In this document: piece by piece, positions 11,903 through 26,722 of the stretch
How positions within the stretch are numbered: position 1 is the first letter of the stretch
Layout of the letters: each line of letters starts with the position of its first letter
Assembly (NCBI GenBank): GCA_022788185.1
Contig: JALEVV010000066.1
Coordinates: forward strand, 1-33,331
Direction of reading: 5' to 3'
From: Spirochaetales bacterium
GTDB lineage: Bacteria > Spirochaetota > Spirochaetia > Sphaerochaetales > Sphaerochaetaceae
DNA length: 33,331 nt
Program-made: the position numbers and the translations under genes
The notes under the pieces: generated by a model
Told to the model about the DNA's origin: nothing
The model's database searches: none
Seen by the model: the letters and a program-made list of their open reading frames with translations, nothing else

Positions 11903-11918
11903 GAAACGGAGGGTGAAA

Positions 11919-12461
11919 ATGTCGATGATAACTGAGATCATGAGAAAGGAATCAGAGTGCAGGAAAGTGATAAGGAAGAAGTATCCCGGTCTTCCTTCTT
12001 ATGACTGTCCGAACCTGGATGTGTACATGATTATAGCATACGGACATGCAGGAAAATCCTATCCTGAAGAAACATTAAGCACTGCCGAAGAACTTGAAAA
12101 TCTCTTCAGCCTTAATTCAAGGCTGTCCTCCCTTATCGGAAGACCTCTTGACTGGATTCATGATGCTGATGAAGCGGAATACTATCTGAGTCATACGGAA
12201 GAGTATGAAAATCTCTTAGCCATATACGAAAGTGAATTACACTCATTCAGATACATCGTGTCAGAGCTGGAAAAAAGAAATGTCCTTGCCGTTCATCCAC
12301 AGGAGGATGGTATCCTAGTATTTGACTGCATGAGAGAAGAACTGGACCTATCGGATAAATGGTCCCCATCCATCAGGAAAATCAGTTACGCCATCGCTAT
12401 TAAGCCATGTAACATGGATGCTTTTCTGAATAAACTCAGAGTATATGAGCTGTTTAGTTGA
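11919..12461 (+). CDS. Unrecognised cytoplasmic protein
   Basis: The ATG at 11919 is preferred over the GTG at 11913 because CGGAGGG lies 6-7 nt upstream of it. It encodes 180 residues with no signal peptide or membrane segment, rich in Glu and Ser/Leu. The sequence looks helical with a central acidic part (DWIHDADEAEYYLSHTEEYENLLAIYESEL) and a C-terminal alpha/beta part (ISYAIAIKPCNMDAFLNKL). I do not recognise the family. The gene stands alone between a terminator and the next gene's own promoter, and shares its promoter motif with other small accessory genes here. Confidence 0.6.
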   Translation: MSMITEIMRKESECRKVIRKKYPGLPSYDCPNLDVYMIIAYGHAGKSYPEETLSTAEELENLFSLNSRLSSLIGRPLDWIHDADEAEYYLSHTEEYENLLAIYESELHSFRYIVSELEKRNVLAVHPQEDGILVFDCMREELDLSDKWSPSIRKISYAIAIKPCNMDAFLNKLRVYELFS

Positions 12462-12595: not shown

Positions 12596-13765
12596 ATGAG
12601 TGAATTCACAAAGGGAATATTTGAAATAAAAAAATCAAGATCGTACTGTGAATACGTAAAATACCATTCGAACAATTTACTTGATATAACCAAGGTTTCA
12701 AGACAGGAACATATGCACAGCAATTTCATAGCGTGGCTTCTTAACCCAACTGAATCACACTTTCTACATACGTATCCTCTTGAGAAATTTCTGCTTAATC
12801 TTGAATTTCTGAAAGATAAGGAATGTAATGCTGAATCAAGATTGGACAAAAAAATAATCTGGAAATTCTATGAGCAGGGTTTTGTCGATACTGCGCAGGT
12901 GCGCAGAGAATACCATTATATAGATATTCATATACTGGTAAGGACAAAGGAAAAAATACTTCCTGTGATAATTGAAAATAAAGTTAAGTCACACGAGACA
13001 GGAGAACAAACTGACGAATATTTCAATTATTGTGAAAAAGTATATCAAGATAGAGATTATTATTATGAACCAATTTATGTGTATTTGGTACCTGAGTTCA
13101 ATAAAAATAAAAAGCCCACAAACAAGAATTTCCTTATAATGTCGTATCAGGAATTGGTTGAGAATGTTATTGAACCTTCAATGGCTATGTGCAAAGAGGA
13201 AGTTTCAAAAAACAATATGAGACTTTATCTTCAGTGTTTATCATACCAGGATGATGATAAAGGAGGAACAGCTATGGCAATTAGCAATGAAGAAAGGAAG
13301 ATACTCAGTGACTTCATCGAAGAAAACAGGAATCTTCTTATTTCTGTGTTGAATGAACTTTCCAGTGATGTGGATGAAAGTGTTATTACCAAAATGACCG
13401 GAGCAGTAAGAGATTATAGCAAATACTTGTTTAATGGCGTTGAATATTCAAAAAGCAGACTTGTCCTTGCTGTAGTAAAACAATATGTCAATGATCTTAA
13501 GCCTGTGGACTATAATTCTCTATTAGAAGTTTTTCCTGATTCTTTGCAAGGAACAAATAGAGGCGTAGTAAGATTAGCAGATGATGTTAGAAAAACAGAT
13601 AAAGGTAATGGTGGTAAAAAGAGATATTTTGTTGAAGATGGAGATATTATTAGGCTGCCTTCTGGACAAAATGTATTGGTGTGTAATCAGTGGGGAATCG
13701 ACAATATCTCTTCTTTCATTGAACATGTCAGTAAAAGGTTAAACTATAGAATACAAAAGATATAA
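12596..13765 (+). CDS. PD-(D/E)XK nuclease with C-terminal module
   Basis: A 389-residue protein, visibly more AT-rich than its neighbours (many AAA/AAT/ATA codons), which suggests horizontal transfer. Residues 35-60 (SRQEHMHSNFIAWLLNPTESHFLH) and 105-145 match the PDDEXK_4-type nuclease core. Asp110 lies in HYIDIHI, Glu127 and Lys129 in PVIIENKV, and Gln138 follows in EQTDEY. These are the expected metal-binding and catalytic residues. Residues 285-385 form a second module (KSRLVLAVVKQYV, LEVFPDSLQG, RYFVEDGDIIRLPSGQNVLVCNQWG). I recognise it as a small domain appended to several nuclease-type and defence-type proteins. A role in cutting foreign DNA or RNA is inferred. The gene has its own promoter and a strong terminator, so it acts as a single-gene unit. 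Confidence 0.75.
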   Translation: MSEFTKGIFEIKKSRSYCEYVKYHSNNLLDITKVSRQEHMHSNFIAWLLNPTESHFLHTYPLEKFLLNLEFLKDKECNAESRLDKKIIWKFYEQGFVDTAQVRREYHYIDIHILVRTKEKILPVIIENKVKSHETGEQTDEYFNYCEKVYQDRDYYYEPIYVYLVPEFNKNKKPTNKNFLIMSYQELVENVIEPSMAMCKEEVSKNNMRLYLQCLSYQDDDKGGTAMAISNEERKILSDFIEENRNLLISVLNELSSDVDESVITKMTGAVRDYSKYLFNGVEYSKSRLVLAVVKQYVNDLKPVDYNSLLEVFPDSLQGTNRGVVRLADDVRKTDKGNGGKKRYFVEDGDIIRLPSGQNVLVCNQWGIDNISSFIEHVSKRLNYRIQKI

Positions 13766-14514: not shown

Positions 14515-14526
14515 TCACACTATAGG
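14515..14526 (+). promoter_or_regulatory. TCACACTATAGG promoter-like motif
   Basis: A TCACnCTATA element 19 nt before the ATG at 14546. TTGTCA sits 16-17 nt upstream of the TATA, so this is a plausible complete sigma-70 promoter. Confidence 0.5.
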
Positions 14527-14545: not shown

Positions 14546-14890
14546 ATGAGAAGCTATGAGGAAATAAAGGCTTCAGGGCCCTGGGATGGGCTTTCGGATG
14601 ATGAGGAGATCATGTTTTCAGTCATGAAGGGTGCAGAGGAAATAATTGCCGGGGGAGAGGAGCTGACACTCATCACGATGTACGATCTCTGTGATGACGT
14701 GATGGAGGAGTACGATGCATGCTTCACTGAGTCAGGGGTGTATTCCGCAGGAGGAGATAACTGGTTCTCAAAGTGCATTTACGAGAACAGGGACAAGGGT
14801 ATCAGGTATGAGATAACCATCATGCCTGACGGATACACGGTAACTGATGTGAACGTCTCGCTGATGTATACGGAAATGAGTGATGAATAA
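14546..14890 (+). CDS. Unrecognised small acidic protein
   Basis: The ATG at 14546 is chosen over the longer frame from 14459 because GGGAGG lies 6-7 nt upstream and a promoter-like element lies directly before that. The 114-residue product is strongly acidic (LSDDEEIMFSVMKGAEEIIAGGEE) with no membrane segment or known motif. The C-terminal half looks like alternating beta strands (KCIYENRDKGIRYEITIMPDG). Function unknown. It is followed by its own terminator hairpin. Confidence 0.6.
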   Translation: MRSYEEIKASGPWDGLSDDEEIMFSVMKGAEEIIAGGEELTLITMYDLCDDVMEEYDACFTESGVYSAGGDNWFSKCIYENRDKGIRYEITIMPDGYTVTDVNVSLMYTEMSDE

Positions 14891-14917
14891 GGGCTGCCGG
14901 AGGGCAGTCCTCTTTGT
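14891..14917 (+). terminator. Intrinsic terminator
   Basis: GGGCTGCC (14891-14898) pairs with GGCAGTCC (14903-14910) over 8 bp with one G-U pair and a 4-nt loop, followed by TCTTTGT. It begins directly after the TAA of the preceding gene. Confidence 0.65.
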
Positions 14918-14960
14918 GTCTACCCGCATCCTCACAAACTTAAACAGGCATGGTAATTAT

Positions 14961-15029
14961 CTTACAAAACACCGAAAAAAATCTTTGCAAAACGCTGAAA
15001 AAAATCTTTGCAAAACGCTGAAAAAAATA
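14961..15029 (+). repeat. Three tandem 23-bp direct repeats
   Basis: Three units of 23 bp at 14961-14983, 14984-15006 and 15007-15029. Units two and three are identical except for the last base. Unit one differs at four positions. The core is TTTGCAAAACGCTGAAAAAA. Because 23 is not a multiple of 3, the units cannot be a coding repeat. They end about 15 bases before the ATPase start, where TACAAT (15028-15033) could be a -10. They look like iteron-style operator sites. Confidence 0.75.
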
Positions 15030-15044
15030 CAATTATTTCATTGT

Positions 15045-16319
15045 ATGAAAGAGTATAAATCAAGAGTAGTAGATATAGTTCTGGCAAGGAAACTTGAAGC
15101 CAAAGGTGCTGTTCTTATAAAAGGGCCAAAGTGGTGTGGGAAAACCACTTCCGCATTACAGCAGGCGAAAAGCATTCTGAGAATGGATAATCCCCTGGAA
15201 AAGGATCAAAACCTGTATCTTTCAAAGCTGAATCCTCAAAGACTGCTTAACGGTAACACTCCACGGCTGATAGATGAGTGGCAGATAGCTCCGACACTCT
15301 GGGATACTATACGATTTGAAGTTGATCAGAGAGGAGAGAAGGGGCAGTTCATACTGACAGGTTCAGCAGTACCTCCTGATACGAAAGAGATCACACATTC
15401 AGGTACAGGACGTTTCTCATGGATTACGATGAGACCAATGAGCCTGTATGAGTCAGGTGAATCCAGCGGTGAAGTCAGTTTGAAAGATTTATTTGATGGT
15501 AAACTGGAAGTTGATGGAGAAAACACACTTGATATTGATGGACTTGCTTTCCTTGTCTGCAGGGGAGGATGGCCACAGTCCGTCGGATTGAAAACCTGTG
15601 CCGCACTTCAGCAGGCTTTGGATTATTATGATGCAGTTGTTAAATCAGATATCAGCAGGGTTGATGGTGTGGCCCGGAATCCTGAACGGGTAAAAAGGAT
15701 AATGAGATCATATGCCAGAAATCAGGGAAGTCAGGCTGCCTATACGGTCATTGCAAGAGATATTTCTGATAACGGAGTAATGAGTGTCAATGAAGACACT
15801 GTGCTTTCTTACACTGAAGCTCTGAGAAAAATATTTGTCATTGAGGATATGCCCGCATGGAATCCCAAGCTGAGGTCAAAGTCAGTAATCAGGACAACCG
15901 ATACCAGATATTATGTAGATCCTTCAATTGCTACTGCCAGTCTCGGTATCGGACCTGACGACTTAATAAATGATCTGAGAACGTTCTGACTGTTCTTTGA
16001 AACTCTCTGCGTAAGGGATTTAAGGGTCTTTGCGGATAGCCTGGATGGTACTGTATATCACTACAGGGACAACACTAACCTTGAATGTGATACCGTTATC
16101 CATTTGAGAAATGGCTCCTATGGACTGATAGAAATCAAGCTGGGCGGAGAGGATCTGATCAGTGAAGGGGCAGCAAATCTGCTGAAACTGAAAGATAAGA
16201 TTGATGTTTCAAGAATGAAAGCACCATCCTTTCTGATGGTACTTGTCGGAGTAGGCAGGTATGCATACAGAAGGGAAGACGGGGTTCTTGTCGTGCCTAT
16301 AGGTTGCCTGAAAAACTGA
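15045..16319 (+). pseudogene. AAA ATPase with DUF4143, interrupted by TGA
   Basis: The frame from ATG 15045 to TGA 16317-16319 encodes a 424-codon protein, the normal length of the AAA_14/DUF4143 ATPase family. One TGA at 15987-15989 cuts it after residue 314. Walker A is GPKWCGKTT (residues 27-35), followed by RLIDEWQIAPTLWD (Walker B region), the sensor-like FILTGSAVP, and a C-terminal DUF4143 part. The family normally reads TFG-LxFE where this gene reads TF-stop-LFFE, so a Gly codon (probably GGA) became TGA. The downstream part is intact (CVRDLRVFADSLDGTVYHYRD, YGLIEIKLGG), so the break is recent. Family members are ATPases of unsettled function, often in accessory regions. No Shine-Dalgarno is visible. 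Confidence 0.75.
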
Positions 16320-16475: not shown

Positions 16476-16689
16476 GAAATACCACAATCTGAGTTTTTAA
16501 GCTAAACATTTTTATCATGGTTGTTTCCAACCATCTTTAGTTCGCACCAATTTCCGGATTCTGTCATTCTGCAGTATGGAGGTTGTATTTTTTTTCATCT
16601 TTATCATGCTTCCTTTTTCCGGATCTCTTTATATTAATAGCATGCGGAGAAAATTTAATTGTTTAGTTTAAATAAAACAATTATTTTTC
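16476..16689. other. Non-coding gap with small hairpins
   Basis: AT-rich, with no credible ORF on either strand. A hairpin ATGGTTG-TTTC-CAACCAT lies at 16517-16534 with only weak T-rich flanks. Nothing else was recognised. Confidence 0.35.
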
Positions 16690-16927
16690 TTGACAATTGC
16701 GGTGATGTGTTTTAGGTTTAAATTGTATAAAACATATTGGAGGAGATTATATGTTTTATGGTATTTGTGTTTAATGGTTTTACCTCCGGCTTCCTGAAAG
16801 CCTGAGTTTCCCTGAAAAGAAAAATGATATGTCCTGACATCCTTTCTGATGAGGAAGGATGTGGGATTTCGCTCTTGAAACAACGACAGAAAAACTGGCG
16901 TGAGGCTGCTGTCGTCTCCTGAGGAGG
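16690..16927 (+). promoter_or_regulatory. Promoter and structured leader of the sigma factor gene
   Basis: A perfect TTGACA lies at 16690-16695; the matching -10 is uncertain (TAGGTT at 17 nt, or TATAAA at 16726). GGAGGAG (16739-16745) with ideal spacing precedes a 7-codon ORF, MFYGICV (16751-16774). A stable hairpin ACATCCTT/AAGGATGT (16837-16862) and a stem ACGACAG/CTGTCGT (16883-16915) follow. The palindrome CTCCTGAGGAG (16916-16926) contains the Shine-Dalgarno of the sigma gene. The arrangement resembles a leader peptide with RNA structures that could control translation. Regulation is inferred. Confidence 0.45.
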
Positions 16928-16933
16928 ATGAAA

Positions 16934-17695
16934 ATGGATAGGTATGAACTTGACAGACTGGCAACGATGACAAAAAAGGATAAGAGCTTTTTTCCCCTGC
17001 TGATGGAAAACTCAAAATCCATAGTGGAACTTACGGTGTCCAGGTATGCCCAGGATGCAAACATGTCATATAAGGACGATTACACGTCGGAAGCTTACTT
17101 CGCTCTGTTCAGATGTCTTGAGACTTATGATGCATCCTGCGGAGCATTTGCATCCTATGCATCCTATGCGGCAAAGCAGGGAATTCTTGACTACATGAGA
17201 AACAGTCAGAGTATGATAAGTGTCGGCAGCACCAAGCTTAACGAGATTAAGAAGGTTGAGGAGGCCATTTCCACGATCAGGGAAAGCGGACTTGAGCTGA
17301 ATAATGACAATCTCAGGAAGTTTTCCGGAATAAGCTCTGAGAAGACTCTCCGTACTGTGCTCTGGGCCAGAACGGTAAAGGATTGTTTGTCACTGAATGC
17401 ACCGGTAGGTGATGATGGAAAGCAGGAACTGATGGATATTGTTCCCATGGATTGCTACAGCGTTGAAGATGAGGTTTTTGAGAGCGAGGAGCTGAGAATG
17501 CTTGAAGAAAGTATCTTCAGTCTTTCCAGAGATGACAGGTTCATTATCATCAGTTCATACGGCCTTTACGGACATGATGTGCTCACGAACAGGGAAATCG
17601 CATCAAGGCTCGGTATTTCGGAAAACACGGTTGTTAACAGGAAGAAGTCCATTCAGGCTCGTCTTCGTGAAAGGATGGAATCATGGGCTTCCTGA
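16934..17695 (+). CDS. RNA polymerase sigma-70 family factor
   Basis: The ATG at 16934 is preferred over 16928 because AGGAGG (16922-16927) is then 6 nt away, not adjacent. The 253-residue protein has region 2 at about residues 40-95 (YTSEAYFALFRCLETYDASC then GAFASYASYAAKQGILDYMR, the core-binding and -10 helices). A middle region 3-like part follows, with region 4 at the C-terminus (LTNREIASRLGISENTVVNRKKS, a helix-turn-helix for the -35). There is no region 1.1, so this is an alternative sigma factor and not the housekeeping one. It precedes, on the same strand, the HsdS-like and HsdM-like genes, with a 64-base gap. Its target promoters are unknown; the downstream pair is the obvious candidate. 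Confidence 0.85.
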   Translation: MDRYELDRLATMTKKDKSFFPLLMENSKSIVELTVSRYAQDANMSYKDDYTSEAYFALFRCLETYDASCGAFASYASYAAKQGILDYMRNSQSMISVGSTKLNEIKKVEEAISTIRESGLELNNDNLRKFSGISSEKTLRTVLWARTVKDCLSLNAPVGDDGKQELMDIVPMDCYSVEDEVFESEELRMLEESIFSLSRDDRFIIISSYGLYGHDVLTNREIASRLGISENTVVNRKKSIQARLRERMESWAS

Positions 17696-17741
17696 AGCTC
17701 ATGATTAGTCCTAATAAAACAACTGTTTCCCATATGGTGTC

Positions 17742-17756
17742 TATCATGGTATGATA
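17742..17756 (+). promoter_or_regulatory. Palindromic extended -10 before the HsdS-like gene
   Basis: TATCAT-GGT-ATGATA is a perfect inverted repeat. The same bases include TGGTATGAT, an extended -10 (TGnTATnAT). A start point near 17762 would put the AGGAG at 17769 and the TTG at 17782 in a normal leader. Confidence 0.4.
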
Positions 17757-17781
17757 ATGGATGTTTTCAGGAGAAAGACTA

Positions 17782-18402
17782 TTGAAACTCAGTGATATTG
17801 CCGGTGAAATCTACACGGGGGTGCTTACACGCCGTGTCGTATTTGAGGAGGGGGAGCTTGCAGCCATGAGTGAGGCTGAGACAGCAACACTTGAAAGTGC
17901 CCGTATTCTTATGCCCAAAGCCATAGCGGATGGCGTTATTGATCACAGCCAGCTTCAGGAAGTGAAGCTGAAGAAGGAAGTGAAGGAAAAATTCCGCACT
18001 CACCTTGGCGATGTGATCATGAAGCTTTCCTCGCCATACGACTGCTGTGTCATTGAGAAAGAGGAAGATGAGAACCTGATAGTTCCATCCTTCTGCCTTC
18101 GCATAGGTTCGATAGATGAAGCGTACGATCCTTACTTCATAATGGCTTTCCTTACCTCCGCATCCGCCTGGAAACAGATAGAAAAGACAATGATGGGAAG
18201 GGCTCTGTCGATTATCAGCAATGAGAGCGTGTCTGAACTTATGTTTCCTGACATGACTCCCGAACAAAGGCATGAAGCAGGGTACAGATATGAGAGAACA
18301 CTTGAGTTCAGAAGAACAGCGGATCGGATCATCAGGCTTGAGAAGGAAAGAAATGATTCATTATTCCTTTCAATGGAGGTAAATGATGAAGCGAAGCTAT
18401 GA
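17782..18402 (+). CDS. HsdS-like protein with a single target-recognition domain
   Basis: The TTG at 17782 is chosen because AGGAG lies 8 nt upstream; the ATG at 17761 has no ribosome-binding site and lies at the predicted transcription start. The 206-residue protein follows the pattern of one half of a type I restriction specificity subunit. LSDIAGEIYTG opens it, then ILMPKAIADGVID, LGDVIMKLSSPYDCCVI, LIVPSFCLRI and DPYFIMAFLTSASAWKQI. Next come ALSIISNESVSELMFPDMTP with EQRHEA, and a C-terminal helix (EFRRTADRIIRLEKERNDSL) like the HsdS spacer helix. Full HsdS proteins have two such halves and about 400 residues; this has one, so a dimer would be needed. It overlaps the HsdM-like gene by 17 bases. 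DNA recognition is the inferred job. Confidence 0.65.
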   Translation: MKLSDIAGEIYTGVLTRRVVFEEGELAAMSEAETATLESARILMPKAIADGVIDHSQLQEVKLKKEVKEKFRTHLGDVIMKLSSPYDCCVIEKEEDENLIVPSFCLRIGSIDEAYDPYFIMAFLTSASAWKQIEKTMMGRALSIISNESVSELMFPDMTPEQRHEAGYRYERTLEFRRTADRIIRLEKERNDSLFLSMEVNDEAKL

Positions 18403-19645
18403 CAGCCTTAAAATGAGTTATAACGGACCTCGTTCCGATGCGGAAAAAAATAAAAGGGAAATACTCAGACACTGTATGGAAACCTCATTGGGTGAGTTTG
18501 ACCCGGGTGAAATGACTTTGATCTATCTTTTCCTGCTTTTTCTTACTGCCGCCGAAGACGGAATTGATATGACTTCCGGTCTCAGTTTTGAGGAAATGAC
18601 CGAGCTTGCGTACCGTGCCAGGTGGATGGAAAAGGAAGCTCATATGGAGGGTGATGAGGTTTTCCGCTTCATCTGTTCCATACGTGACAGGGAGTTCCGG
18701 AGCACACGGGAAGCAGTGAAAAGGGGCTTTGATGACAATGTGAATCCTTTCTTCATCCGGAAAGGGAAGCAGCTCACCTCAGAAGAAATAGCTGAAACAG
18801 TTAATTCCTGTTTGTCATCAACAAGAGTGACCCGGTTTAATGAATGGCAGGTTGCCATGGCTGAAAACCTGCTTTCCATTACCGACGGTGACCGGATACT
18901 GATTGAAACTGAAGACATGCCAGGAGCCTTCATGAGCATTGGAGAGGGCTACGACCGTAATGTAATCATTGCAGTTACGGATTCAGTTCAGAGAGTGCTG
19001 ACCAAGATGGTCTTTTTCATGCTTATCCCCAAGGCCGAGCAGGGCAGGTATACAATAACAGCCAGGCCTGAGAACAATGAGGAGTACCGTGGCCTTGGAT
19101 ATAATAAAAGCCTGGTCCTTTTCCCCGGAGTTTTCTTACCCCTCCGTGAAAGAGCTGAGCTTGAAGAGGATATCGGAAAAGGCGTGACCATGCTGTTTGT
19201 CGTAAGTGACCGGTTTCTCAGTATCAGGAATGGGAGGAACTATGAAAACCGAAGAACTCTTATGGAACTTGGAAGTGATGTTTCCGTTCTTTCATTCGGT
19301 ACGAAAAGCCGTATTGCGCCTTCAATGATACTGCTGTCTCCGAAGAGTGCTGACTCTTTCGTTTCAATGCTCAGTGTGAGATTCTGTGATGAGATCCTTA
19401 ATGATGAGTCATGTCATCAGATAGCATCAGCCCTGAAAGGTTGTGAGGAAAACGGGTTTTCCCCTTCAGTAAAAAAAGTGTCACGTGAGGAAGTATCCTC
19501 ACATGACTATATGCTTATCCCTGAATATTACAGCCAGCCAGTGAGCAGTGAGTTCAGGAATCTTTATGAAATTGACAAAGAACTGGATAGAGAGTACTGG
19601 AAAATGAGAAAACTCTGTTCCTTCTTTTCCGGACGGTCATATTGA
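18386..19645 (+). CDS. HsdM-like protein without catalytic motifs
   Basis: The ATG at 18386 has GGAGGT 5 nt upstream; the ATG at 18383 is too close. The 419-residue protein aligns by eye with the order of parts in N6-adenine methylase subunits of type I systems. GDRILIETEDMPGAF (about residue 167) stands where motif I (DPACGSG) should be, and NVIIAVTDSVQRVLTKM follows. LVLFPGVFLPL (about 241) stands where NPPF should be. Then come MLFVVSDRFLSIRNG, RIAPSMILLSPKS, and the typical C-terminal VSREEVSSHDYMLIPEYY. Motif I and the NPPF motif are both lost, so no methylation is expected. It is co-translated with the HsdS-like protein and probably binds it. The assignment rests on pattern comparison only. 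Confidence 0.5.
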   Translation: MKRSYDSLKMSYNGPRSDAEKNKREILRHCMETSLGEFDPGEMTLIYLFLLFLTAAEDGIDMTSGLSFEEMTELAYRARWMEKEAHMEGDEVFRFICSIRDREFRSTREAVKRGFDDNVNPFFIRKGKQLTSEEIAETVNSCLSSTRVTRFNEWQVAMAENLLSITDGDRILIETEDMPGAFMSIGEGYDRNVIIAVTDSVQRVLTKMVFFMLIPKAEQGRYTITARPENNEEYRGLGYNKSLVLFPGVFLPLRERAELEEDIGKGVTMLFVVSDRFLSIRNGRNYENRRTLMELGSDVSVLSFGTKSRIAPSMILLSPKSADSFVSMLSVRFCDEILNDESCHQIASALKGCEENGFSPSVKKVSREEVSSHDYMLIPEYYSQPVSSEFRNLYEIDKELDREYWKMRKLCSFFSGRSY

Positions 19646-20355: not shown

Positions 20356-20814
20356 TCAAGCGTGCCTTATCGTAATGGTGTGTGCATCGGGATGACAGTA
20401 ATCAAATCCCGTAATCCTGAAGGCAGTCTTCAGGCTTTCATCGCTGAAGCATGACTCCAGTACTATTTCCTTCTCTGTGCTGATTTCAAGATCAGCTCCG
20501 TTGAAAGAAGCAAGGAACCTGAAGAAGTGGAAGTTGAAGAGCCTGTGCTCAAAGGTCAGTTCAATCCTGTCATCGGAAAGAGCTGACAGCGAAACAAGCG
20601 GTAGTGCATACTCGGCATCTTCCCAGGATGAATATGAGCTGTTCTCCTTCGCAAAGCAGGTATATAGCTCGGGGTACTCCTTTACGCATGATTCCTTCCA
20701 GGGTGCAAATGCCTCATAAAGGTCCGCAAGTCTGTAATTGCCGGTCAGGTTTTCAAGTTTTCTGACTAGGTCCGTGAATGTGCTGTCTTTTCTGGTCATG
20801 ATAATTTTATCCAT
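20356..20814 (-). CDS. Unrecognised protein
   Basis: A 152-residue soluble protein with no signal peptide. The start has AGGAG 7-8 nt upstream. The N-terminal half is helical (FTDLVRKLENLTGNYRLADLYEAF) and the C-terminal half looks like beta strands (RIELTFEHRLFNFHFFRFLA, DLEISTEKEIVLESCF). This resembles small immunity-like or SMI1-like folds only in general outline, so I assign no family. A TAACACTATATG element 18 nt upstream of the ATG belongs to the promoter-motif set shared by other small genes in this region. Confidence 0.55.
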   Translation of the reverse strand: MDKIIMTRKDSTFTDLVRKLENLTGNYRLADLYEAFAPWKESCVKEYPELYTCFAKENSSYSSWEDAEYALPLVSLSALSDDRIELTFEHRLFNFHFFRFLASFNGADLEISTEKEIVLESCFSDESLKTAFRITGFDYCHPDAHTITIRHA

Positions 20815-20832
20815 ACAAATCTCCTACACATA

Positions 20833-20844
20833 CATATAGTGTTA
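20833..20844 (-). promoter_or_regulatory. TAACACTATATG promoter-like motif
   Basis: On the minus strand, a variant of the TCACnCTATA set, 18 nt before the ATG at 20814, with AGGAG between. Confidence 0.4.
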
Positions 20845-20862: not shown

Positions 20863-21222
20863 TCATTCTTCCACAGGATGAATCGTGACTTCAAATACTT
20901 CAAATGTGTCTGCGTAGAACAAAACCTCAAAACAGTAGCCTTCGCTGTTCTCATAGGCTGCATCTCCTATGCCGAATCCACAGCCTCCTTGAGTGTATAC
21001 AGCACCATGCAGCTCTTTCATGTATATGTCAAAGGAGGTACAGAACGACGCATAGTCGAGTTCTGTGACGGAAAGTATTATTTCCCTGATGACTTCGGCA
21101 TCCCGTATGATGACATGGTTCAGACACTCAGGATGGTGACCTTCTGCTTCCTTCTTCATGATTTCTGCAAGCGAACTTCTATCTTCGTTGTTTATTAGCT
21201 CTTCTGAAAACGGGTATTTCAT
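20863..21222 (-). CDS. Unrecognised small protein
   Basis: A 119-residue acidic soluble protein with a strong Shine-Dalgarno (AAGGAGG, 5 nt before ATG). The first half is helical (MKYPFSEELINNEDRSSLAE). The second half has YTQGGCGFGIGDAAYENSEG and then a beta-like CFEVLFYADTFEVFEVTIHP. No family is recognised. It carries the best copy of the shared promoter motif directly upstream. Its neighbours are the toxin-antitoxin pair upstream and another unrecognised gene downstream, all on the minus strand. Confidence 0.55.
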   Translation of the reverse strand: MKYPFSEELINNEDRSSLAEIMKKEAEGHHPECLNHVIIRDAEVIREIILSVTELDYASFCTSFDIYMKELHGAVYTQGGCGFGIGDAAYENSEGYCFEVLFYADTFEVFEVTIHPVEE

Positions 21223-21238: not shown

Positions 21239-21250
21239 ATTATAGTGTGA
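21239..21250 (-). promoter_or_regulatory. TCACACTATAAT promoter-like motif
   Basis: On the minus strand TCACACTATAAT includes a perfect -10 TATAAT, 16 nt before the ATG at 21222. No clear -35 is seen. Confidence 0.5.
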
Positions 21251-21292: not shown

Positions 21293-21955
21293 TCAGCTGT
21301 CAGAATCGTACGGCCATCTTTCCATCAGATCCTCAGGGTGGCAGTACATTGCCTTTGAAAGTCGGTACAGCGTATCAAAGGACGCTTTGTTGATATTCCT
21401 GTTCCGCTCCTCGTACATCTGTATGGAACGCAGTGATACTCCTGATCTATTTGAAAGCTCCTCCTGCGTAATATTAATGCACATGCGTGCCCGCTTGAGT
21501 TCTGTCTCCCTGAATGTTTCCCTGAACCGCTCTTCCGCGATATCCATGAATTTGGAAATATCAGCTTCGTGAAGAGTCGTGTACATCTTCTCGAAGTCAC
21601 TGTATGGGATGGACGTGAACAGTTCACGAAAAGACCTGTCAGTGTACCACTGACAGTATGCGGCGGTCCATCCTATCCAGTGTTCCTTTGTTCTGAAGAA
21701 TCTGCATTCAGGCTTGATTTCAGGTGCCCTGCCTGTGGTTTCCTCAATTACGTCGACGAGTATTTCAATACCACTTTTTCCAAGAGCATAGCGTGATTCA
21801 CCTCTTTCGAGGCTCCTGCATACCTGGCTCCTGCAGAAGAGCTCCGTGAACTCCTCGCCGGGTATTAAACAGACGTTGATGGCATAGTCGAACGCAATGC
21901 CAAGCCGTGTCTGGACTTTATTCACATATATTTCGTGGTATGCGTGGATCGTCAT
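21293..21955 (-). CDS. HTH antitoxin-like partner of the DUF3990 protein
   Basis: A 220-residue protein with a C-terminal XRE-type helix-turn-helix at about residues 150-210 (INITQEELSNRSGVSLRSIQ, then the linker MYEERNRNINKASFDTLYRL). The N-terminal part (LGIAFDYAINVCLIPGEEF, YALGKSGIEILVDVIEET) and the middle (IGWTAAYCQWYTDRSF) match a protein family that I know as the regular partner of DUF3990 genes. It starts inside the toxin gene with a 38-base overlap, so the two are translated together. It most likely neutralises the toxin and represses the operon through the two palindromes at 22635-22688. The repressor role is inferred from context. Confidence 0.75.
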   Translation of the reverse strand: MTIHAYHEIYVNKVQTRLGIAFDYAINVCLIPGEEFTELFCRSQVCRSLERGESRYALGKSGIEILVDVIEETTGRAPEIKPECRFFRTKEHWIGWTAAYCQWYTDRSFRELFTSIPYSDFEKMYTTLHEADISKFMDIAEERFRETFRETELKRARMCINITQEELSNRSGVSLRSIQMYEERNRNINKASFDTLYRLSKAMYCHPEDLMERWPYDSDS

Positions 21956-22625
21956 TACCTATTTTCCCTCTCATAATATCCCTGATATACAGCCCGTCAC
22001 TTTCTTCAGAAAGCATATTTAGATATGAATCAGAAGCCTCTTTCTCCCTTGTTTCGCGGTTTTTGAAATAAATGTCGGCAGGAGCATTGATGCATCCGTC
22101 ATAACAGATGGAGGCAAAAGCAGCCTTCGATTTGATGACTATCTGTTCTCCAAGCTTGCCGAGTCTCATTGCCGATGCAAGCTGTTCGATGGAAATGGTG
22201 TTGCTGAGAAAAGCCGCGGCGAAATCATAATATGAATCATCCGCTCTGTACCCAGTTACAATGTCATAAGCATTTACGTTCACCGAAAAGTTTCTTATCA
22301 GATAATTTCTCGCCTGACTCTCTACAGGAGTGGACGGTGTAAAGAGGCGATGTTCGATAAGCACGGCTATCCAGTTCAGCACTGTGTATTCCGGGCTGTT
22401 CAGGTTAAGTATCCTGAGGTATTCGGCATCGACAAGATATCTGTTTGCATAGCCATCCCTGCCTGCAGAGGTTGCCCATTCCTTTGCAAGCTCTTCACTT
22501 TCCGTGCAATAAAATCCCTGTCCGAAATCATTGTTCTTTTTTCCAAGTCCGAACCTGGGTGTTTCGATTATCTCTTGAGAGCCATGGTAAAGAGTTATGA
22601 TTTTGTTAATGCCCTGTCTTATCAT
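21918..22625 (-). CDS. DUF3990 ADP-ribosyltransferase-like toxin
   Basis: A 235-residue protein with the DUF3990 signature: TLYHGSQEIIETPRFGLGKK (His14), then NNDFGQGFYCTES (Tyr39), and GEQIVIKSKAAF with the third conserved polar residue near residue 180. DUF3990 belongs to the ADP-ribosyltransferase-like group, so the expected activity is NAD-dependent modification of a cell target. The C-terminal 50 residues are charged and helical. The ATG at 22625 has no Shine-Dalgarno and lies only a few bases after a possible -10 (TATATT), so the transcript may be leaderless or the start uncertain. It is the first gene of a two-gene operon with the HTH protein. Confidence 0.75.
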   Translation of the reverse strand: MIRQGINKIITLYHGSQEIIETPRFGLGKKNNDFGQGFYCTESEELAKEWATSAGRDGYANRYLVDAEYLRILNLNSPEYTVLNWIAVLIEHRLFTPSTPVESQARNYLIRNFSVNVNAYDIVTGYRADDSYYDFAAAFLSNTISIEQLASAMRLGKLGEQIVIKSKAAFASICYDGCINAPADIYFKNRETREKEASDSYLNMLSEESDGLYIRDIMRGKIGNDDPRIPRNICE

Positions 22626-23432: not shown

Positions 23433-23775
23433 CGACTGCTACCATTTCCTTTATCATTATTTCATTGCCTTCAAGAAGGTATGTGTGCTCACTGCCGCAG
23501 TGAGGGCATACCTTTCCGTGCTCGACCGTGGGATACTTTTCCCCGCAGTCCTCACAGTAGGTCACCGCCTTTATGATCTCGATCTTTATTGCCGCATCCT
23601 TAAAGACGGTTTCCTTCTTTACGGCCCACTTCCAGCAGTCCTCAAACAGGTAGGGGATCACGGTGGAAACCTCACCGAGCATTACGGTGACGGAGTTCAC
23701 CCGTTTCACCTGGTTTTCCTCCGCAATCCTCTTCACCTGATCGAGGCAGTGGAATACCACCCCGAGTTCATGCAT
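23425..23775 (-). CDS. hypA: Nickel metallochaperone HypA
   Basis: A 116-residue protein of normal HypA length. The N-terminus is MHE, giving the nickel-binding His2. The zinc site is formed by Cys74, Cys77, Cys90 and Cys93 (TYCEDCGEKY, KVCPHCGSEH). HypA delivers nickel with HypB during maturation of [NiFe] hydrogenases and can also serve urease. It overlaps the oxidoreductase gene upstream and hypB downstream by 8 bases each, a very tight operon. Confidence 0.92.
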   Translation of the reverse strand: MHELGVVFHCLDQVKRIAEENQVKRVNSVTVMLGEVSTVIPYLFEDCWKWAVKKETVFKDAAIKIEIIKAVTYCEDCGEKYPTVEHGKVCPHCGSEHTYLLEGNEIMIKEMVAVDE

Positions 23776-26587
23776 CTCCCTTGTCCTTTCCTGAGAACAG
23801 GATCTTCACGCCTCTCTTTGCGGCATAGGGGATGATATGGCTGAATTTGTCTTCGGCCACGACCATCTTTGTTGCCTCCGGATGGTCACGCTTCAGGTAA
23901 ATCGCATCGAAGGCACACTTTGTCGTACAGATTCCGCAGCCTATGCACTTGTTCGGGTCGGCAATTGTGACGCCGCAGCCGAGACATCTGGATGTTTCAG
24001 TCTTCACCTGCTCTTCAGTCAGGATGCCTGTGCTTTCAGTGAATGCACCTGTGTACTTCTCATCGGGCTCCTGACGTCCTGCAGTGTCGTAGGAAATGAG
24101 TGAGATGTCATCCTTGTCCAGTTCGATGAACTCCCTTCTGTTCCTGCCGATAGTCATGTGGCCGTTCTGCACATGGCGGTGGAGGGACTCGGCTGCCTCA
24201 TGGCCCTGGGCTATCGCATCGATGGCGAACTTCGGACCTGTGAGCACGTCGCCGCCGATGAAGATGTCGGGAACCGCACTCTGGTATGTGAGCTTTTCTG
24301 CCCTGGGGTATGAACCATGGTGGAATTCAAGGGCTTCGCCTTTGAAGAGGTCTCCGGCATCAACGCTCTGTCCGATTGCATAGATGACCATTGAGGCATC
24401 GGCTGAGAAGGTCTCCCTTTCATCAAAGACAGGTGAGAACTTACCGTTTTCATCAAATACGCGGGTACACTTCCTGAAGACGACTGACTTCACCCGGCCA
24501 TCCTCTGCCACTATCTCCTTAGGTCCCCAGCCCGGTGTGATGATGACACCATCCTCGCGGGCTTCCCTTATTTCATTCTTCGAGGCAGGCATAATGTCCT
24601 CGCTCTCGAGGGACACCATGGTGACGCTCTCGGCTCCGCTTCGCTTTGCGACCCTTGCCGCGTCGATGGCGACGTTGCCGCCTCCGATGACGATGCATGA
24701 GCCTGTAAGCTTGACGCTGCCTGTATTGGCCTTCCTCAGGAACTCGACTGCCGTTGATGTGCCCTCCGCCTTCTCGTTCTCAAGACCGGGATATTTTCCG
24801 CCCTGGCATCCGATGGCGATGTAGAAGGCCTTATAGCCTTCCTCCCTGAGCTGGCTTATGGTCACATCCTTGCCGACCTCGACGCCGCACTTTATCTCAA
24901 CCCCGATTTCCCTCATGATGTCTATTTCGGCATCGATGACATTCTTTTCCAGTTTGTAGGAAGGGATTCCGTAGCGGAGCATTCCGCCGGGCTCTGCATT
25001 CTTCTCGAACACGGTGGGATAATATCCCATCTGGGCAAGGTAGTAGGCACAGGAAAGACCTGCGGGACCTGCTCCTATGATCGCAATCTTTTCCTTCCAT
25101 CTGCCTTTGTTAGATGCGATCACGATCTCGGGCACATAGCGGTGTTCCGCTTCCAGATCCTTCTGGGCTATGAATTTCTTCACTTCGTCGATCGATACTG
25201 CCCTGTCGATGGTGCCTCTCGTGCATGCATCCTCACATCGCTTGTTGCACACCCTTCCGCACACTGCGGGGAAGGGGTTTTCCTTCTTTATGAGTGCAAG
25301 GGCATCCCGGTATTTACCCTGAGCTGCCTTCTTTAAGTATCCCTGGACCGCAATGTGTGCGGGACATGCCGTCTTACAGGGGGCCGTACCGGTCGTATGA
25401 CAGTTTATGCGGTTTTTGTCCCTGTAATCCTCAGTCCACATGTCGCGGGACCACTTCCTTTTATCGGGAAGGGGCTGCTTCGGATACTTCACCTCGCTTC
25501 CGTCCTTTCTGCAGAGCTTCTGTCCGAGCTTCAGGGCTCCTGCGGGACAGTATTCAACGCACTGGCCGCAGGCAACGCAGTTTTCCTTCTTTACGTGTGC
25601 CCGGTAAGCCGATGCCGACATATTGGGTGTGTTGAAGAGTTGGGAGGTTCTCAGGGCATTGCAGATCTTCACGTTGCAGTTGCAGATTGCAAAGATCTTG
25701 TTCTCACCGTCGATGTTCGTGACCTGATGGACGAAGCCGTTGTCCTCGGCCCTTTTCAGGATTTCCATCGCCTCATCATAGGTGATGTCACGGCCCCTTC
25801 CGGTCTCACGGCAGTAATCGGCCATGTCACCGACGCCTATGCACCAGTCCTGATAGTCATCGGCACACCCTTCATCCAGTTTCTTCCTGCCGTAGCGGCA
25901 TGAACAGATCGAGGCTCCGATGTGGCCCTCGTATTTCTTAAGCCAGTAGGAGATGTGCTCCAGGTCCATGGTCCCGTTCTCCATCTCAATCGCCTTTTCG
26001 ACGGGAATGACGTGCATGCCTATTCCACCGCCTCCGGGAGGAACCATCTGCGTGATCCCGGCAAGCGGAAGGTAAGTCATGCGCTCGAAGAACATGGCAA
26101 GCTCCGGGTGCCGGTCCATGAGGGCCGTGTTCATGTTGGTATACTCGGCTGAGCCCGGTACGAAGAGGGGAATCCAGTAGTGTCTGTCTTCCTTATTGTA
26201 AGTGGTGCCGGGAACGGGTCCGTCCTTGGTGTACCTGTCACCATAGTCATATTCAAGCATCCCGAAGAAGGAAAGGCGGTCAAGCAGTGCCTCTGCCTTC
26301 TCATCACTCATGCCCAGCTTCCTGCACATGTCCATCATCACGGAATACTGATACTTCTTCCTGACCTTCATCTTCAGCAGCAGGTCGAGGGCGTTGTCGC
26401 TCATTTCCTTATCAAGCTCGTCCTCGAAGATACAGGCAAAGCCCCAGTACTCCGGATCCTGAGTCGAAATACCCTTAATCTTTCCAAGTGCCCTGTCGGT
26501 AACCTTTCTTACGAACTTCAGCAGCTTCGGATTCGGATTTGTGTCATTAGCGTGTGCCGGAACATACTTTTTGCTTATCTCTGGCAT
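23768..26587 (-). CDS. Large GltD-like flavin/Fe-S oxidoreductase
   Basis: The ATG at 26587 has GGGAGAT upstream; the longer frame has no such site. The 939-residue protein has several parts. An N-terminal region of about 330 residues includes SICSCRYGRKKL and FAICNCNVKICNA, rich in possible Cys ligands. A ferredoxin motif ENCVACGQCVEYCPAGA follows near residue 334. A GltD/DPYD-type domain with many Cys (about 396-460) precedes two Rossmann folds (IIGAGPAGLSCAYYL near 499, IVIGGGNVAIDAARV near 629). A C-terminal ferredoxin domain (CIGCGICTTKC, near 884) ends it. This is the glutamate-synthase-small-subunit-like, FAD and NAD(P) dependent oxidoreductase pattern. It is co-transcribed with hypA and hypB, so a link to hydrogen or another nickel-dependent metabolism is inferred; the electron acceptor is unknown. 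Confidence 0.85.
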   Translation of the reverse strand: MPEISKKYVPAHANDTNPNPKLLKFVRKVTDRALGKIKGISTQDPEYWGFACIFEDELDKEMSDNALDLLLKMKVRKKYQYSVMMDMCRKLGMSDEKAEALLDRLSFFGMLEYDYGDRYTKDGPVPGTTYNKEDRHYWIPLFVPGSAEYTNMNTALMDRHPELAMFFERMTYLPLAGITQMVPPGGGGIGMHVIPVEKAIEMENGTMDLEHISYWLKKYEGHIGASICSCRYGRKKLDEGCADDYQDWCIGVGDMADYCRETGRGRDITYDEAMEILKRAEDNGFVHQVTNIDGENKIFAICNCNVKICNALRTSQLFNTPNMSASAYRAHVKKENCVACGQCVEYCPAGALKLGQKLCRKDGSEVKYPKQPLPDKRKWSRDMWTEDYRDKNRINCHTTGTAPCKTACPAHIAVQGYLKKAAQGKYRDALALIKKENPFPAVCGRVCNKRCEDACTRGTIDRAVSIDEVKKFIAQKDLEAEHRYVPEIVIASNKGRWKEKIAIIGAGPAGLSCAYYLAQMGYYPTVFEKNAEPGGMLRYGIPSYKLEKNVIDAEIDIMREIGVEIKCGVEVGKDVTISQLREEGYKAFYIAIGCQGGKYPGLENEKAEGTSTAVEFLRKANTGSVKLTGSCIVIGGGNVAIDAARVAKRSGAESVTMVSLESEDIMPASKNEIREAREDGVIITPGWGPKEIVAEDGRVKSVVFRKCTRVFDENGKFSPVFDERETFSADASMVIYAIGQSVDAGDLFKGEALEFHHGSYPRAEKLTYQSAVPDIFIGGDVLTGPKFAIDAIAQGHEAAESLHRHVQNGHMTIGRNRREFIELDKDDISLISYDTAGRQEPDEKYTGAFTESTGILTEEQVKTETSRCLGCGVTIADPNKCIGCGICTTKCAFDAIYLKRDHPEATKMVVAEDKFSHIIPYAAKRGVKILFSGKDKGDA

Positions 26588-26722
26588 GGTGTGATCTCCC
26601 TTTCCGTACAGTGTACAGGAAGATGGTGTCATTTGGAACAGGAAAATAGTGTGTCATAAATACCGGCATGTAAGCCTTTCCATGATTGAACATAAGTGCC
26701 TCATTAAGGATAATGGGTTTTC

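What the first reader, a model, noticed from the sequence alone, without database searches (positions are those of the whole stretch)
16690..19645. Sigma factor linked to a one-TRD HsdS-like and a dead HsdM-like protein
Three same-strand genes form a unit: a sigma-70 family factor, a 206-residue protein that looks like half of a type I specificity subunit, and a 419-residue protein with the layout of HsdM but with ETEDMPGAF in place of the SAM motif and LFPGVF in place of NPPF. No HsdR and no true HsdM are near. Losing catalysis while keeping the order of segments suggests the pair is used for DNA recognition only, for example as a sequence-specific repressor, an anti-phage sensor or a transcription system directed by the sigma factor. 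I know of no described system with this composition.
Basis: partly seen in the sequence, partly recalled or inferred. Interest (0 to 1): 0.75.

Follow-up and report, generated by a model that had tools for sequence, protein, structure and literature searches.

The report
Dead methyltransferase guarding a sigma-factor switch
In a few spirochaetes, a broken-down DNA-methylating enzyme pair (one half-size recognition subunit, one subunit without its catalytic motifs) is kept in an operon with a private sigma factor, and the surrounding DNA carries matching operator-like sites and small genes with a shared promoter box, so the pair probably works as a sequence-specific repressor and not as an enzyme.

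Summary
Window 16928-19645 encodes a full sigma-70 factor, a half-length HsdS (confident fold) and a 420-aa HsdM relative without catalytic motifs I and IV. The triad keeps its order in 5 of 139 family genomes; among the relatives M is under purifying selection (dN/dS 0.14-0.21). Two non-coding features were found. (1) A 20-bp motif, KGWTTA-N6-WTAAAACA, occurs three times in each of the five operons: two copies flank the TTGACA-N17 promoter of the sigma gene, the second over its -10 at a constant offset; the third lies in the sigma-S gap. In the window's genome the stricter form occurs only there (3 of 3). (2) Four small unknown genes around the triad share a promoter-like box; all 4 genome-wide matches of box-SD-ATG lie within 9.4 kb. 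Two sigma-less half-S/degenerate-M operons carry twin copies of a different motif round their promoter. Best reading: half-S/dead-M represses its own sigma operon, and the sigma drives the small genes. Binding and regulation are inferred; three of the five loci are close relatives. Ten paper searches found no such system.

The parts
16660..16679 (+). operator copy 1, TGTTTAGTTTAAATAAAACA, upstream of -35
   Evidence: a copy at this place in 5 of 5 triad loci
16690..16718 (+). sigma-operon promoter TTGACA-N17-TAGGTT
   Evidence: TTGACA-N17-TA(T/G)G(A/T)T in 5 of 5 loci
16715..16734 (+). operator copy 2, overlapping the -10; 55 bp from copy 1
   Evidence: its GWTTA starts 26 nt after the TTGACA start in 5 of 5 loci
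16928..17695 (+). sigma-70 family factor, 255 aa, regions 2-3-4
17702..17721 (+). operator copy 3 in the sigma-S gap, TGATTAGTCCTAATAAAACA
   Evidence: a copy in this gap in 5 of 5 loci (in three of them with TTAAAACA)
17761..18402 (+). half-length HsdS: one TRD (about residues 46-165) and one 45-residue C-terminal helix; 213 aa, or 206 aa from TTG 17782
18383..19645 (+). HsdM-like protein without catalytic motifs I and IV, 420 aa
11893..11900 (+). target promoter-like box ACTCTATA before the 182-aa gene
11913..12461 (+). small gene of unknown function (likely ATG 11919), putative sigma target
   Evidence: no family
14517..14524 (+). target box ACACTATA before the acidic gene whose likely ATG is 14546
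14546..14890 (+). small acidic gene (114 aa), putative sigma target; 26-28% identical in a MAFFT alignment to genes beside the triad in other loci, significance not tested
20835..20842 (-). target box ACACTATA before the 152-aa gene
20356..20814 (-). 152-aa gene of unknown function found in all 5 triad genomes and 1 other of 139; putative sigma target
21241..21248 (-). target box ACACTATA before the 119-aa gene
20863..21222 (-). 119-aa gene of unknown function, putative sigma target

Best explanation
The locus is a small transcriptional switch. The half-HsdS dimerises through its helix, binds two dead HsdM-like subunits as in a type I methyltransferase, and the complex binds the 20-bp operators. 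Two of these straddle the housekeeping-type promoter of the sigma-S-M operon and one lies between sigma and S, so the complex represses its own operon. When it is released (trigger unknown), the sigma factor is made and transcribes the small unknown genes around it from an ACWCTATA-type promoter (in some relatives with TTGTGAT 13 nt before it). SHOWN: gene order and co-occurrence; HsdS-half fold; loss of catalytic motifs with constraint in the relatives; operator positions and near-exclusivity; shared box at flanking genes. INFERRED: HsdM fold of the window M (moderate support), assembly, that S-M is the protein that binds the operators, repression, and that this sigma reads the target box.
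For: M (A7) in 5 of 139 family genomes; in a phylum sample of 392, among whose listed matches the other four triad genomes do not appear, only the window's own genome matches strongly. Sigma clade in the same 5 plus 1 divergent; 152-aa gene in the same 5 plus 1; hypergeometric P 1.5e-8, ignoring kinship. M dN/dS 0.14-0.21 and S 0.06-0.19 in the pairs of relatives where dS is measurable. Operator pattern GWTTANNNNNNATAAAACA: own genome 3 of 3 in this operon; 15 of 17 matches in the 5 genomes lie at sigma promoters or sigma-S gaps, against 1 match of the backwards control pattern in these 5; 28 matches in 24 of the other 134 genomes, no two on one contig. With [GT]G[AT]TTA-N6-[AT]TAAAACA, three copies per operon in 5 of 5 loci. 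Synonymous sites of sigma, S and M between window and B. porci are saturated (ps 0.76-0.85), so this is footprinting at deep divergence. The S TRD is the best conserved part of S (67 against 56 and 49%), against the usual trend for TRDs (recalled). Two sigma-less half-S/degenerate-M operons have twin copies of a different 20-bp motif round a TTGACA promoter, as expected if each S has its own target. Half-HsdS proteins dimerise and read bipartite palindromes (PMC6158711 passages; PMC3874165 section 26). Target box: all 4 box-SD-ATG matches of the own genome lie within 9.4 kb round the sigma gene; CACWCTATA alone has 3 matches in the window, reached by 1 of 100 shuffles.
Against: No binding or expression data. 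The five loci are about three independent lineages: G102, G104 and G129 are close (M dS 0.09-0.35). dN/dS of the window's own M could not be measured (saturated). The operator is only imperfectly symmetric (8-16 of 20 positions self-complementary); the second motif type has 4-8 of 20, about what chance gives, which does not fit a homodimer site. Twin-repeat scores against 25 shuffles each: reached by 0 for window, L091, L021, L023; by 2 for L020 and 1 for L022. One of three sigma-less pairs (L024) shows no twin repeat; of 8 other half-S loci only L062 looks similar, and it scores 14 of 20 in the anchored test, a background value. The M model has pLDDT 49, and A7 against A8 gave no support (probability 0.3). 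Target box: 74 of 139 genomes have at least one match; in the four other triad genomes 4 of 10 matches lie away from the locus; G005 has 1 match against 4 of the backwards control. Of 34 upstream stretches looked at, 9 have the exact box. The -35 part is poorly conserved in the window; the full two-box pattern is no better than shuffles there. A third sigma in G129 lacks operator and S-M (L090).
Confidence: 0.5

Rival explanations
1. The operators are bound by another protein (the 152-aa product, or a regulator elsewhere), and the dead S-M pair has a separate role, for example sequestering the sigma factor as an anti-sigma or tethering it to DNA.
For: The 152-aa gene co-occurs as strictly as the sigma and carries the target box. 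Sigma operons often carry their anti-sigma (recalled). RptR shows that a separate small repressor can control type I loci (PMC12255303, abstract and passages).
Against: S is the only protein of the unit besides the sigma with a recognised DNA-recognition fold (the 152-aa protein was not modelled). The 152-aa protein evolves fast (dN/dS 0.55-0.59 between genera) and also occurs in G103 without the triad. Two sigma-less S-M' operons also have twin repeats.
Confidence: 0.22
2. One reading: the S-M complex is a DNA-targeting partner that brings the sigma-holoenzyme to chosen sites.
For: Same operon and co-occurrence.
Against: The operator motif is at the sigma promoter, over its -10, and at none of the 4 target promoters in the window; the target boxes lie at a near-fixed distance, 18-21 nt, from the start codon as ordinary promoters would.
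Confidence: 0.1
3. S-M still methylates DNA with unorthodox motifs and the locus is an ordinary, diverged solitary methyltransferase with a neighbouring sigma gene.
For: HsdM-like fold hits; relatives L022 and L023 keep a motif-I-like DYVAGxG and pass the N6_Mtase cut-off.
Against: No motif I or IV in any of 5 sigma-linked Ms; co-occurrence and shared operators tie sigma to S-M.
Confidence: 0.06
4. The unit is a decaying restriction-modification remnant without function.
For: Half S, no HsdR noticed, degenerate M.
Against: Constraint among the relatives, open frames in 5 loci (the G104 M runs off its contig), operators conserved at saturated neutral divergence.
Confidence: 0.03

Closest known systems
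Type I methyltransferases with half-length S subunits (EcoR124I delta-50, EcoDXXI truncation, NgoAV; engineered CC398-1 half-S)
   Same: One TRD and one helix per S chain; half-S working with an HsdM; bipartite, symmetric DNA site (PMC3874165 section 26 and PMC6158711 passages)
   Different: Those methylate DNA; here M lacks motifs I and IV, no HsdR was noticed, and the likely sites are operators of the pair's own operon, which also encodes a sigma factor
Half-S + HsdM loci of other spirochaetes
   Same: Order half-S then M; half-S profiles match (hhalign E 1e-12)
   Different: HsdM intact (motifs checked by script in L057 and L062; by eye in the others); a full-length S follows in several; no sigma gene noticed beside them (by eye)
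RptR repressor of type I loci
   Same: Repressor binding repeats at the promoter of a type I locus (PMC12255303, abstract and passages)
   Different: RptR is a separate 79-aa helical protein with a 6-bp palindrome; here the candidate repressor is the S-M pair itself
Ronin and PrrC/EcoprrI (type I complexes as sensors of phage anti-restriction proteins)
   Same: A type I-like complex reused to sense phage and gate an effector (PMC12409349 passages)
   Different: They gate a toxin; here the output would be a sigma factor, and M has lost its catalytic motifs; sensing is not shown
Esub1 (PDB 8vsq/8vsr, 'Co-crystal structure of Prx with Esub1')
   Same: Best structural match of the S model (Foldseek E 1.1e-7, target TM 0.73, 185 residues)
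   Different: Only the PDB titles were seen; no paper naming Esub1 was listed; that Prx is the phage protein paratox is my inference from the listed abstracts

Membership tests
Sigma-70 family factor | Regions 2, 3 and 4 in order | tested here: met
   TIGR02937 1.1e-18 over cut-off; profile A6 aligns to SigA residues 223-441 in one stretch
Type I HsdS | TRD and conserved helix fold | tested here: met
   PADLOC 2.2e-8; model pLDDT 87; Foldseek ranks 1-3 Esub1, ranks 4-20 S subunits or TRD-bearing methyltransferases, BREX included
Type I HsdS | Two TRDs in one chain | tested here: not met
   206-213 aa, one TRD
Type I HsdM | HsdM fold | tested here: inconclusive
   hhalign in register, P 2.9e-4, probability 40%; Foldseek top 10 of 241 all M chains, but model pLDDT 49 and TM below 0.3
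Type I HsdM | SAM motif I and NPPF/DPPY motif IV | tested here: not met
   0 of 5 sigma-linked Ms by regular expression
Type I restriction-modification system | HsdR and a catalytic HsdM in the same locus | tested here: inconclusive
   No N6_Mtase match in the window; HsdR was not searched with a profile; the only ORF over 700 aa, 23768-26632, was not scanned
MADS defence system | Full mad gene set | tested here: inconclusive
   S matches mad5 models weakly (1.4e-5 and far below cut-off; 2.1e-4); no mad model among the hits of the sigma, M or island genes scanned; the M of L023 hits mad2 at 7.5e-9; not every window ORF was scanned
RptR-controlled type I locus | RptR homologue as first gene | not tested
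   First gene is the sigma factor; no RptR search was made
Ronin-type sensor | Sensing of anti-restriction proteins by M-S | not testable with these tools
   needs infection or protein assays

The most novel reading that the evidence does not exclude
A guard system: a catalytically dead type I methyltransferase complex is kept folded as bait for phage anti-restriction proteins (DNA mimics such as Ocr or ArdA) or for phage DNA carrying its sites. While intact it sits on three operators and silences a private sigma factor; when titrated off by a phage factor, the sigma operon fires and switches on a battery of small effector genes in the island. That would turn restriction machinery into a transcription-level infection alarm.
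Probability: 0.15. Interest if true: 0.93.

Novelty: categorically new. Interest (0 to 1): 0.8.

Why it matters
If right, it shows how a restriction-modification recognition complex can be turned into a transcriptional repressor: catalysis lost, half-S specificity kept, operators at its own promoter, and an alternative sigma factor placed under its control. A likeness between half-HsdS dimers and homodimeric transcription factors has been pointed out (PMC6158711, passage in section 20); this gives a natural, testable candidate with mapped sites. It also proposes a recognition sequence for a half-S protein from sequence alone, and names small genes of unknown function as its likely output.

Tried and rejected
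Viral contig scans with M and S: no relative. Genome-contig scan with S: only Bullifex porci. tblastn of the L022 M: none in phages; in plasmids 51 records with partial matches, the 20 listed annotated as type I M proteins. Profile of sigma-linked M against PDB sequences: nothing credible; combined profile A4 hits EcoR124II M at 2.1e-13, but it contains the L022 and L023 relatives, so I do not use it for the window M. A7 against A8: no support. Full TTGTGAT-N13-ACACTATA with up to 3 mismatches in the window: 1 match, reached by 57 of 100 shuffles, not at a target; the test was then moved to the box-SD-ATG pattern. That pattern and the operator pattern were derived by eye from the triad loci in which they then score; only their scarcity elsewhere in those genomes and in the other 134 is independent. 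Twin-repeat test on other half-S loci: L055, L056, L057, L060 and L061 at shuffle level; L056-L060 without a TTGAC anchor, L058 and L059 tested only so; L061 at background when anchored; L062 15 of 20 with 0 of 25 shuffles reaching it but 14 of 20 when anchored. Start positions used for L058-L060 were approximate; L058 has a short half-S frame and no HsdM was seen next to it. Paper searches (10 of 10 used): no sigma + half-HsdS + dead HsdM system in the listings; the library lacks most subscription papers.
Full report
WHAT IS THERE. The window is a whole 33,331-bp contig (G000:C20) of a 2.27-Mb genome in the same genus as G005, whose triad contig has the length (14,687 bp) of the Bullifex porci record found by sequence; B. 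porci is a spirochaete. At 16928-19645 lie a sigma-70 factor, a half-length HsdS and an HsdM-like gene on one strand, the last two overlapping. The sigma has regions 2, 3 and 4 and aligns to SigA in one stretch. S matches type I specificity models and half-S proteins of type I loci (hhalign E 1e-12); its AF2 model (8 sequences) has pLDDT 87 and shows one TRD and a C-terminal helix, residues 167-211. Of 154 Foldseek matches (50 shown) ranks 1-3 are Esub1, of which I saw only the title, and ranks 4-20 are S subunits or TRD-bearing methyltransferases.

M. No family model matches. Against a profile of 7 HsdMs it aligns over 238 columns in register (P 2.9e-4, probability 40%), with ETEDMPGAF near DPTCGSGG. 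An AF2 model from 5 sequences is poor (pLDDT 49), yet the top 10 of 241 PDB matches are M chains of type I or PacII systems (best 3lkd, E 2.4e-5); TM-scores stay below 0.3, so the fold call is moderate. Two relatives in sigma-less pairs (L022, L023) pass the N6_Mtase cut-off and keep DYVAGxG but have DPPL or EPPL; none of the five sigma-linked Ms has motif I or IV. A direct comparison of the two M groups gave no support, so their link rests on HsdM and on the shared half-S neighbour. Among the relatives M evolves under constraint, dN/dS 0.14-0.21; pairs with the window are saturated.

CONSERVATION. Triads in the same order: window, G005, G102, G129 and G104 (M cut by the contig end). M profile: 5 of 139 family genomes; in a 392-genome phylum sample, among whose listed matches the other four do not appear, 1 strong match, the window itself, and 3 marginal ones. 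Sigma clade (E below 1e-25): the same 5 plus G101, divergent. 152-aa neighbour: the same 5 plus G103. G102, G104 and G129 are close kin (M dS 0.09-0.35), so the five are about three lineages. Half-S/degenerate-M pairs without sigma: G127, G137, G136 (L022-L024). In other spirochaete families half-S genes precede HsdM in 7 of 8 loci opened, which gives a likely origin of the S-then-M order.

OPERATORS. Upstream of the window sigma gene stands TTGACA-N17-TAGGTT; TTGACA-N17-TA(T/G)G(A/T)T is present in 5 of 5 triad loci. Two 20-bp copies of KGWTTA-N6-ATAAAACA flank it, 54-56 bp apart, the GWTTA of the second starting 26 nt after the TTGACA start in all five; a third copy (WTAAAACA) lies in the sigma-S gap in all five. 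Searching 139 genomes for GWTTANNNNNNATAAAACA: own genome 3 of 3 in this operon; G005 3 of 5; G102, G104 and G129 3 of 3 each at sigma genes (in these three, one copy belongs to the promoter of a second sigma gene); the other 134 genomes 28 matches in 24 genomes, no two on one contig; the backwards control pattern has 1 match in the five triad genomes together. The window has 48.6% G+C. Synonymous sites between window and G005 are saturated.

A SECOND MOTIF TYPE. The sigma-less operons of L022 and L023 (146-aa gene, half-S, degenerate M) also have twin copies, TGTACMTAAAAAATATATCA-like, 63 bp apart round TTGACA. In the 25-shuffle control the best twin score was reached by 0 shuffles for window, L091, L021 and L023, 1 for L022, 2 for L020. 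Among 176 TTGAC-anchored stretches of nine loci 8 score 15 or more of 20; six of these are loci in question and two are not. The second motif is not symmetric beyond chance (4-8 of 20; sigma type 8-16). L024 has no twin repeat. One locus with an intact HsdM, L062, has two palindromes flanking TTGACA. So self-regulation by half-S pairs may be older than the loss of catalysis; this rests on few loci.

TARGETS. Four small genes around the triad carry AC(A/T)CTATA 18-21 nt before the start codon, with a Shine-Dalgarno sequence between; they are the window's only four matches of that box. CACWCTATA has 3 matches in the window, reached by 1 of 100 shuffles. In the whole own genome ACWCTATAN{5,16}GGAGN{5,9}ATG has 4 matches, all here within 9.4 kb (backwards control 1); in the five triad genomes together 10 of 14 lie on contigs of the triad or its second sigma (control 6 in all, 4 of them in G005, which has 1 match); 74 of 139 genomes have at least one match. 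Of 34 upstream stretches read, 9 have the exact box. In hand-picked sites of relatives TTGTGAT stands 13 nt before the box (152-aa genes of L091, L089, L118, L119, L120, acidic gene of L091), the box itself varying in four of these six. The sigma gene has a housekeeping-type promoter. Inference: the sigma reads the ACWCTATA promoters.

MECHANISM. Half-HsdS chains dimerise and read bipartite palindromes (PMC3874165 section 26, read whole; PMC6158711, passages). The TRD is the best conserved part of this S, and the repeats round the operon are the obvious target. I therefore take S-M as an autorepressor of the sigma operon (confidence 0.5). What releases it is unknown. Type I complexes are known to act as sensors of anti-restriction proteins (PMC12409349, passages), and the island holds PADLOC candidate defence genes, so an infection alarm is the boldest reading (0.15).

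LIMITS. No experiment; motif patterns were derived from the loci they describe; genomes are related, so the co-occurrence P-value is too small; only Spirochaetota were searched by whole genome; the paper library lacks most subscription journals.

Noticed in passing
window 12596-13765, 14880-15989, 21293-22625: Candidate defence genes around the triad by PADLOC: PDC-S26 (PD-(D/E)XK), PDC-S01 (AAA_14/DUF4143) and a PDC-M42A/M42B pair (DUF3990 with an HTH partner); by eye a similar pair is on the G005 triad contig (L091 12025-13312).
   Followed up: partly
L020 8135-8896, L122 6257-7018, L089 503-1264: A second sigma paralogue near the triad in three genomes, with one operator copy before its TTGACA and a large gene with a weak AAA-lid match next to it.
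   Followed up: partly
L089 2508-3056: G104 holds a second, partial M (182 aa, cut by the contig end) that overlaps the M of contig C141 in profile columns but differs in sequence.
   Followed up: no
L090 4074-5036: A third sigma of the clade in G129 without S-M and without the operator, next to a 157-aa RHS-repeat protein.
   Followed up: no
L022 5542-5982 and L023 4559-4999: A conserved small gene (YYIVTAACGHVGRG or similar) leads the sigma-less half-S/degenerate-M operons, in the place of the sigma gene; no Pfam family at a credible E-value. In L022 an intact HsdM and an HsdS follow the pair.
   Followed up: partly
window 16752-16775: Possible 7-codon leader peptide (MFYGICV) with a good Shine-Dalgarno in the roughly 200-nt leader of the sigma gene.
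   Followed up: no
window 14962-15030: Three tandem 23-nt repeats near the start of the AAA_14/DUF4143 ORF; the ORF as listed may start later.
   Followed up: no
L118 1881-3349, L120 2777-3277: Repeated small genes with an R-P-x-Y-D-Y motif beside extra copies of the 152-aa gene.
   Followed up: no
L062 upstream of 5480 (- strand): Two palindromes (ACAGTAAC-N3-GTTACTGT type) flank the promoter of an intact half-S + HsdM locus.
   Followed up: partly
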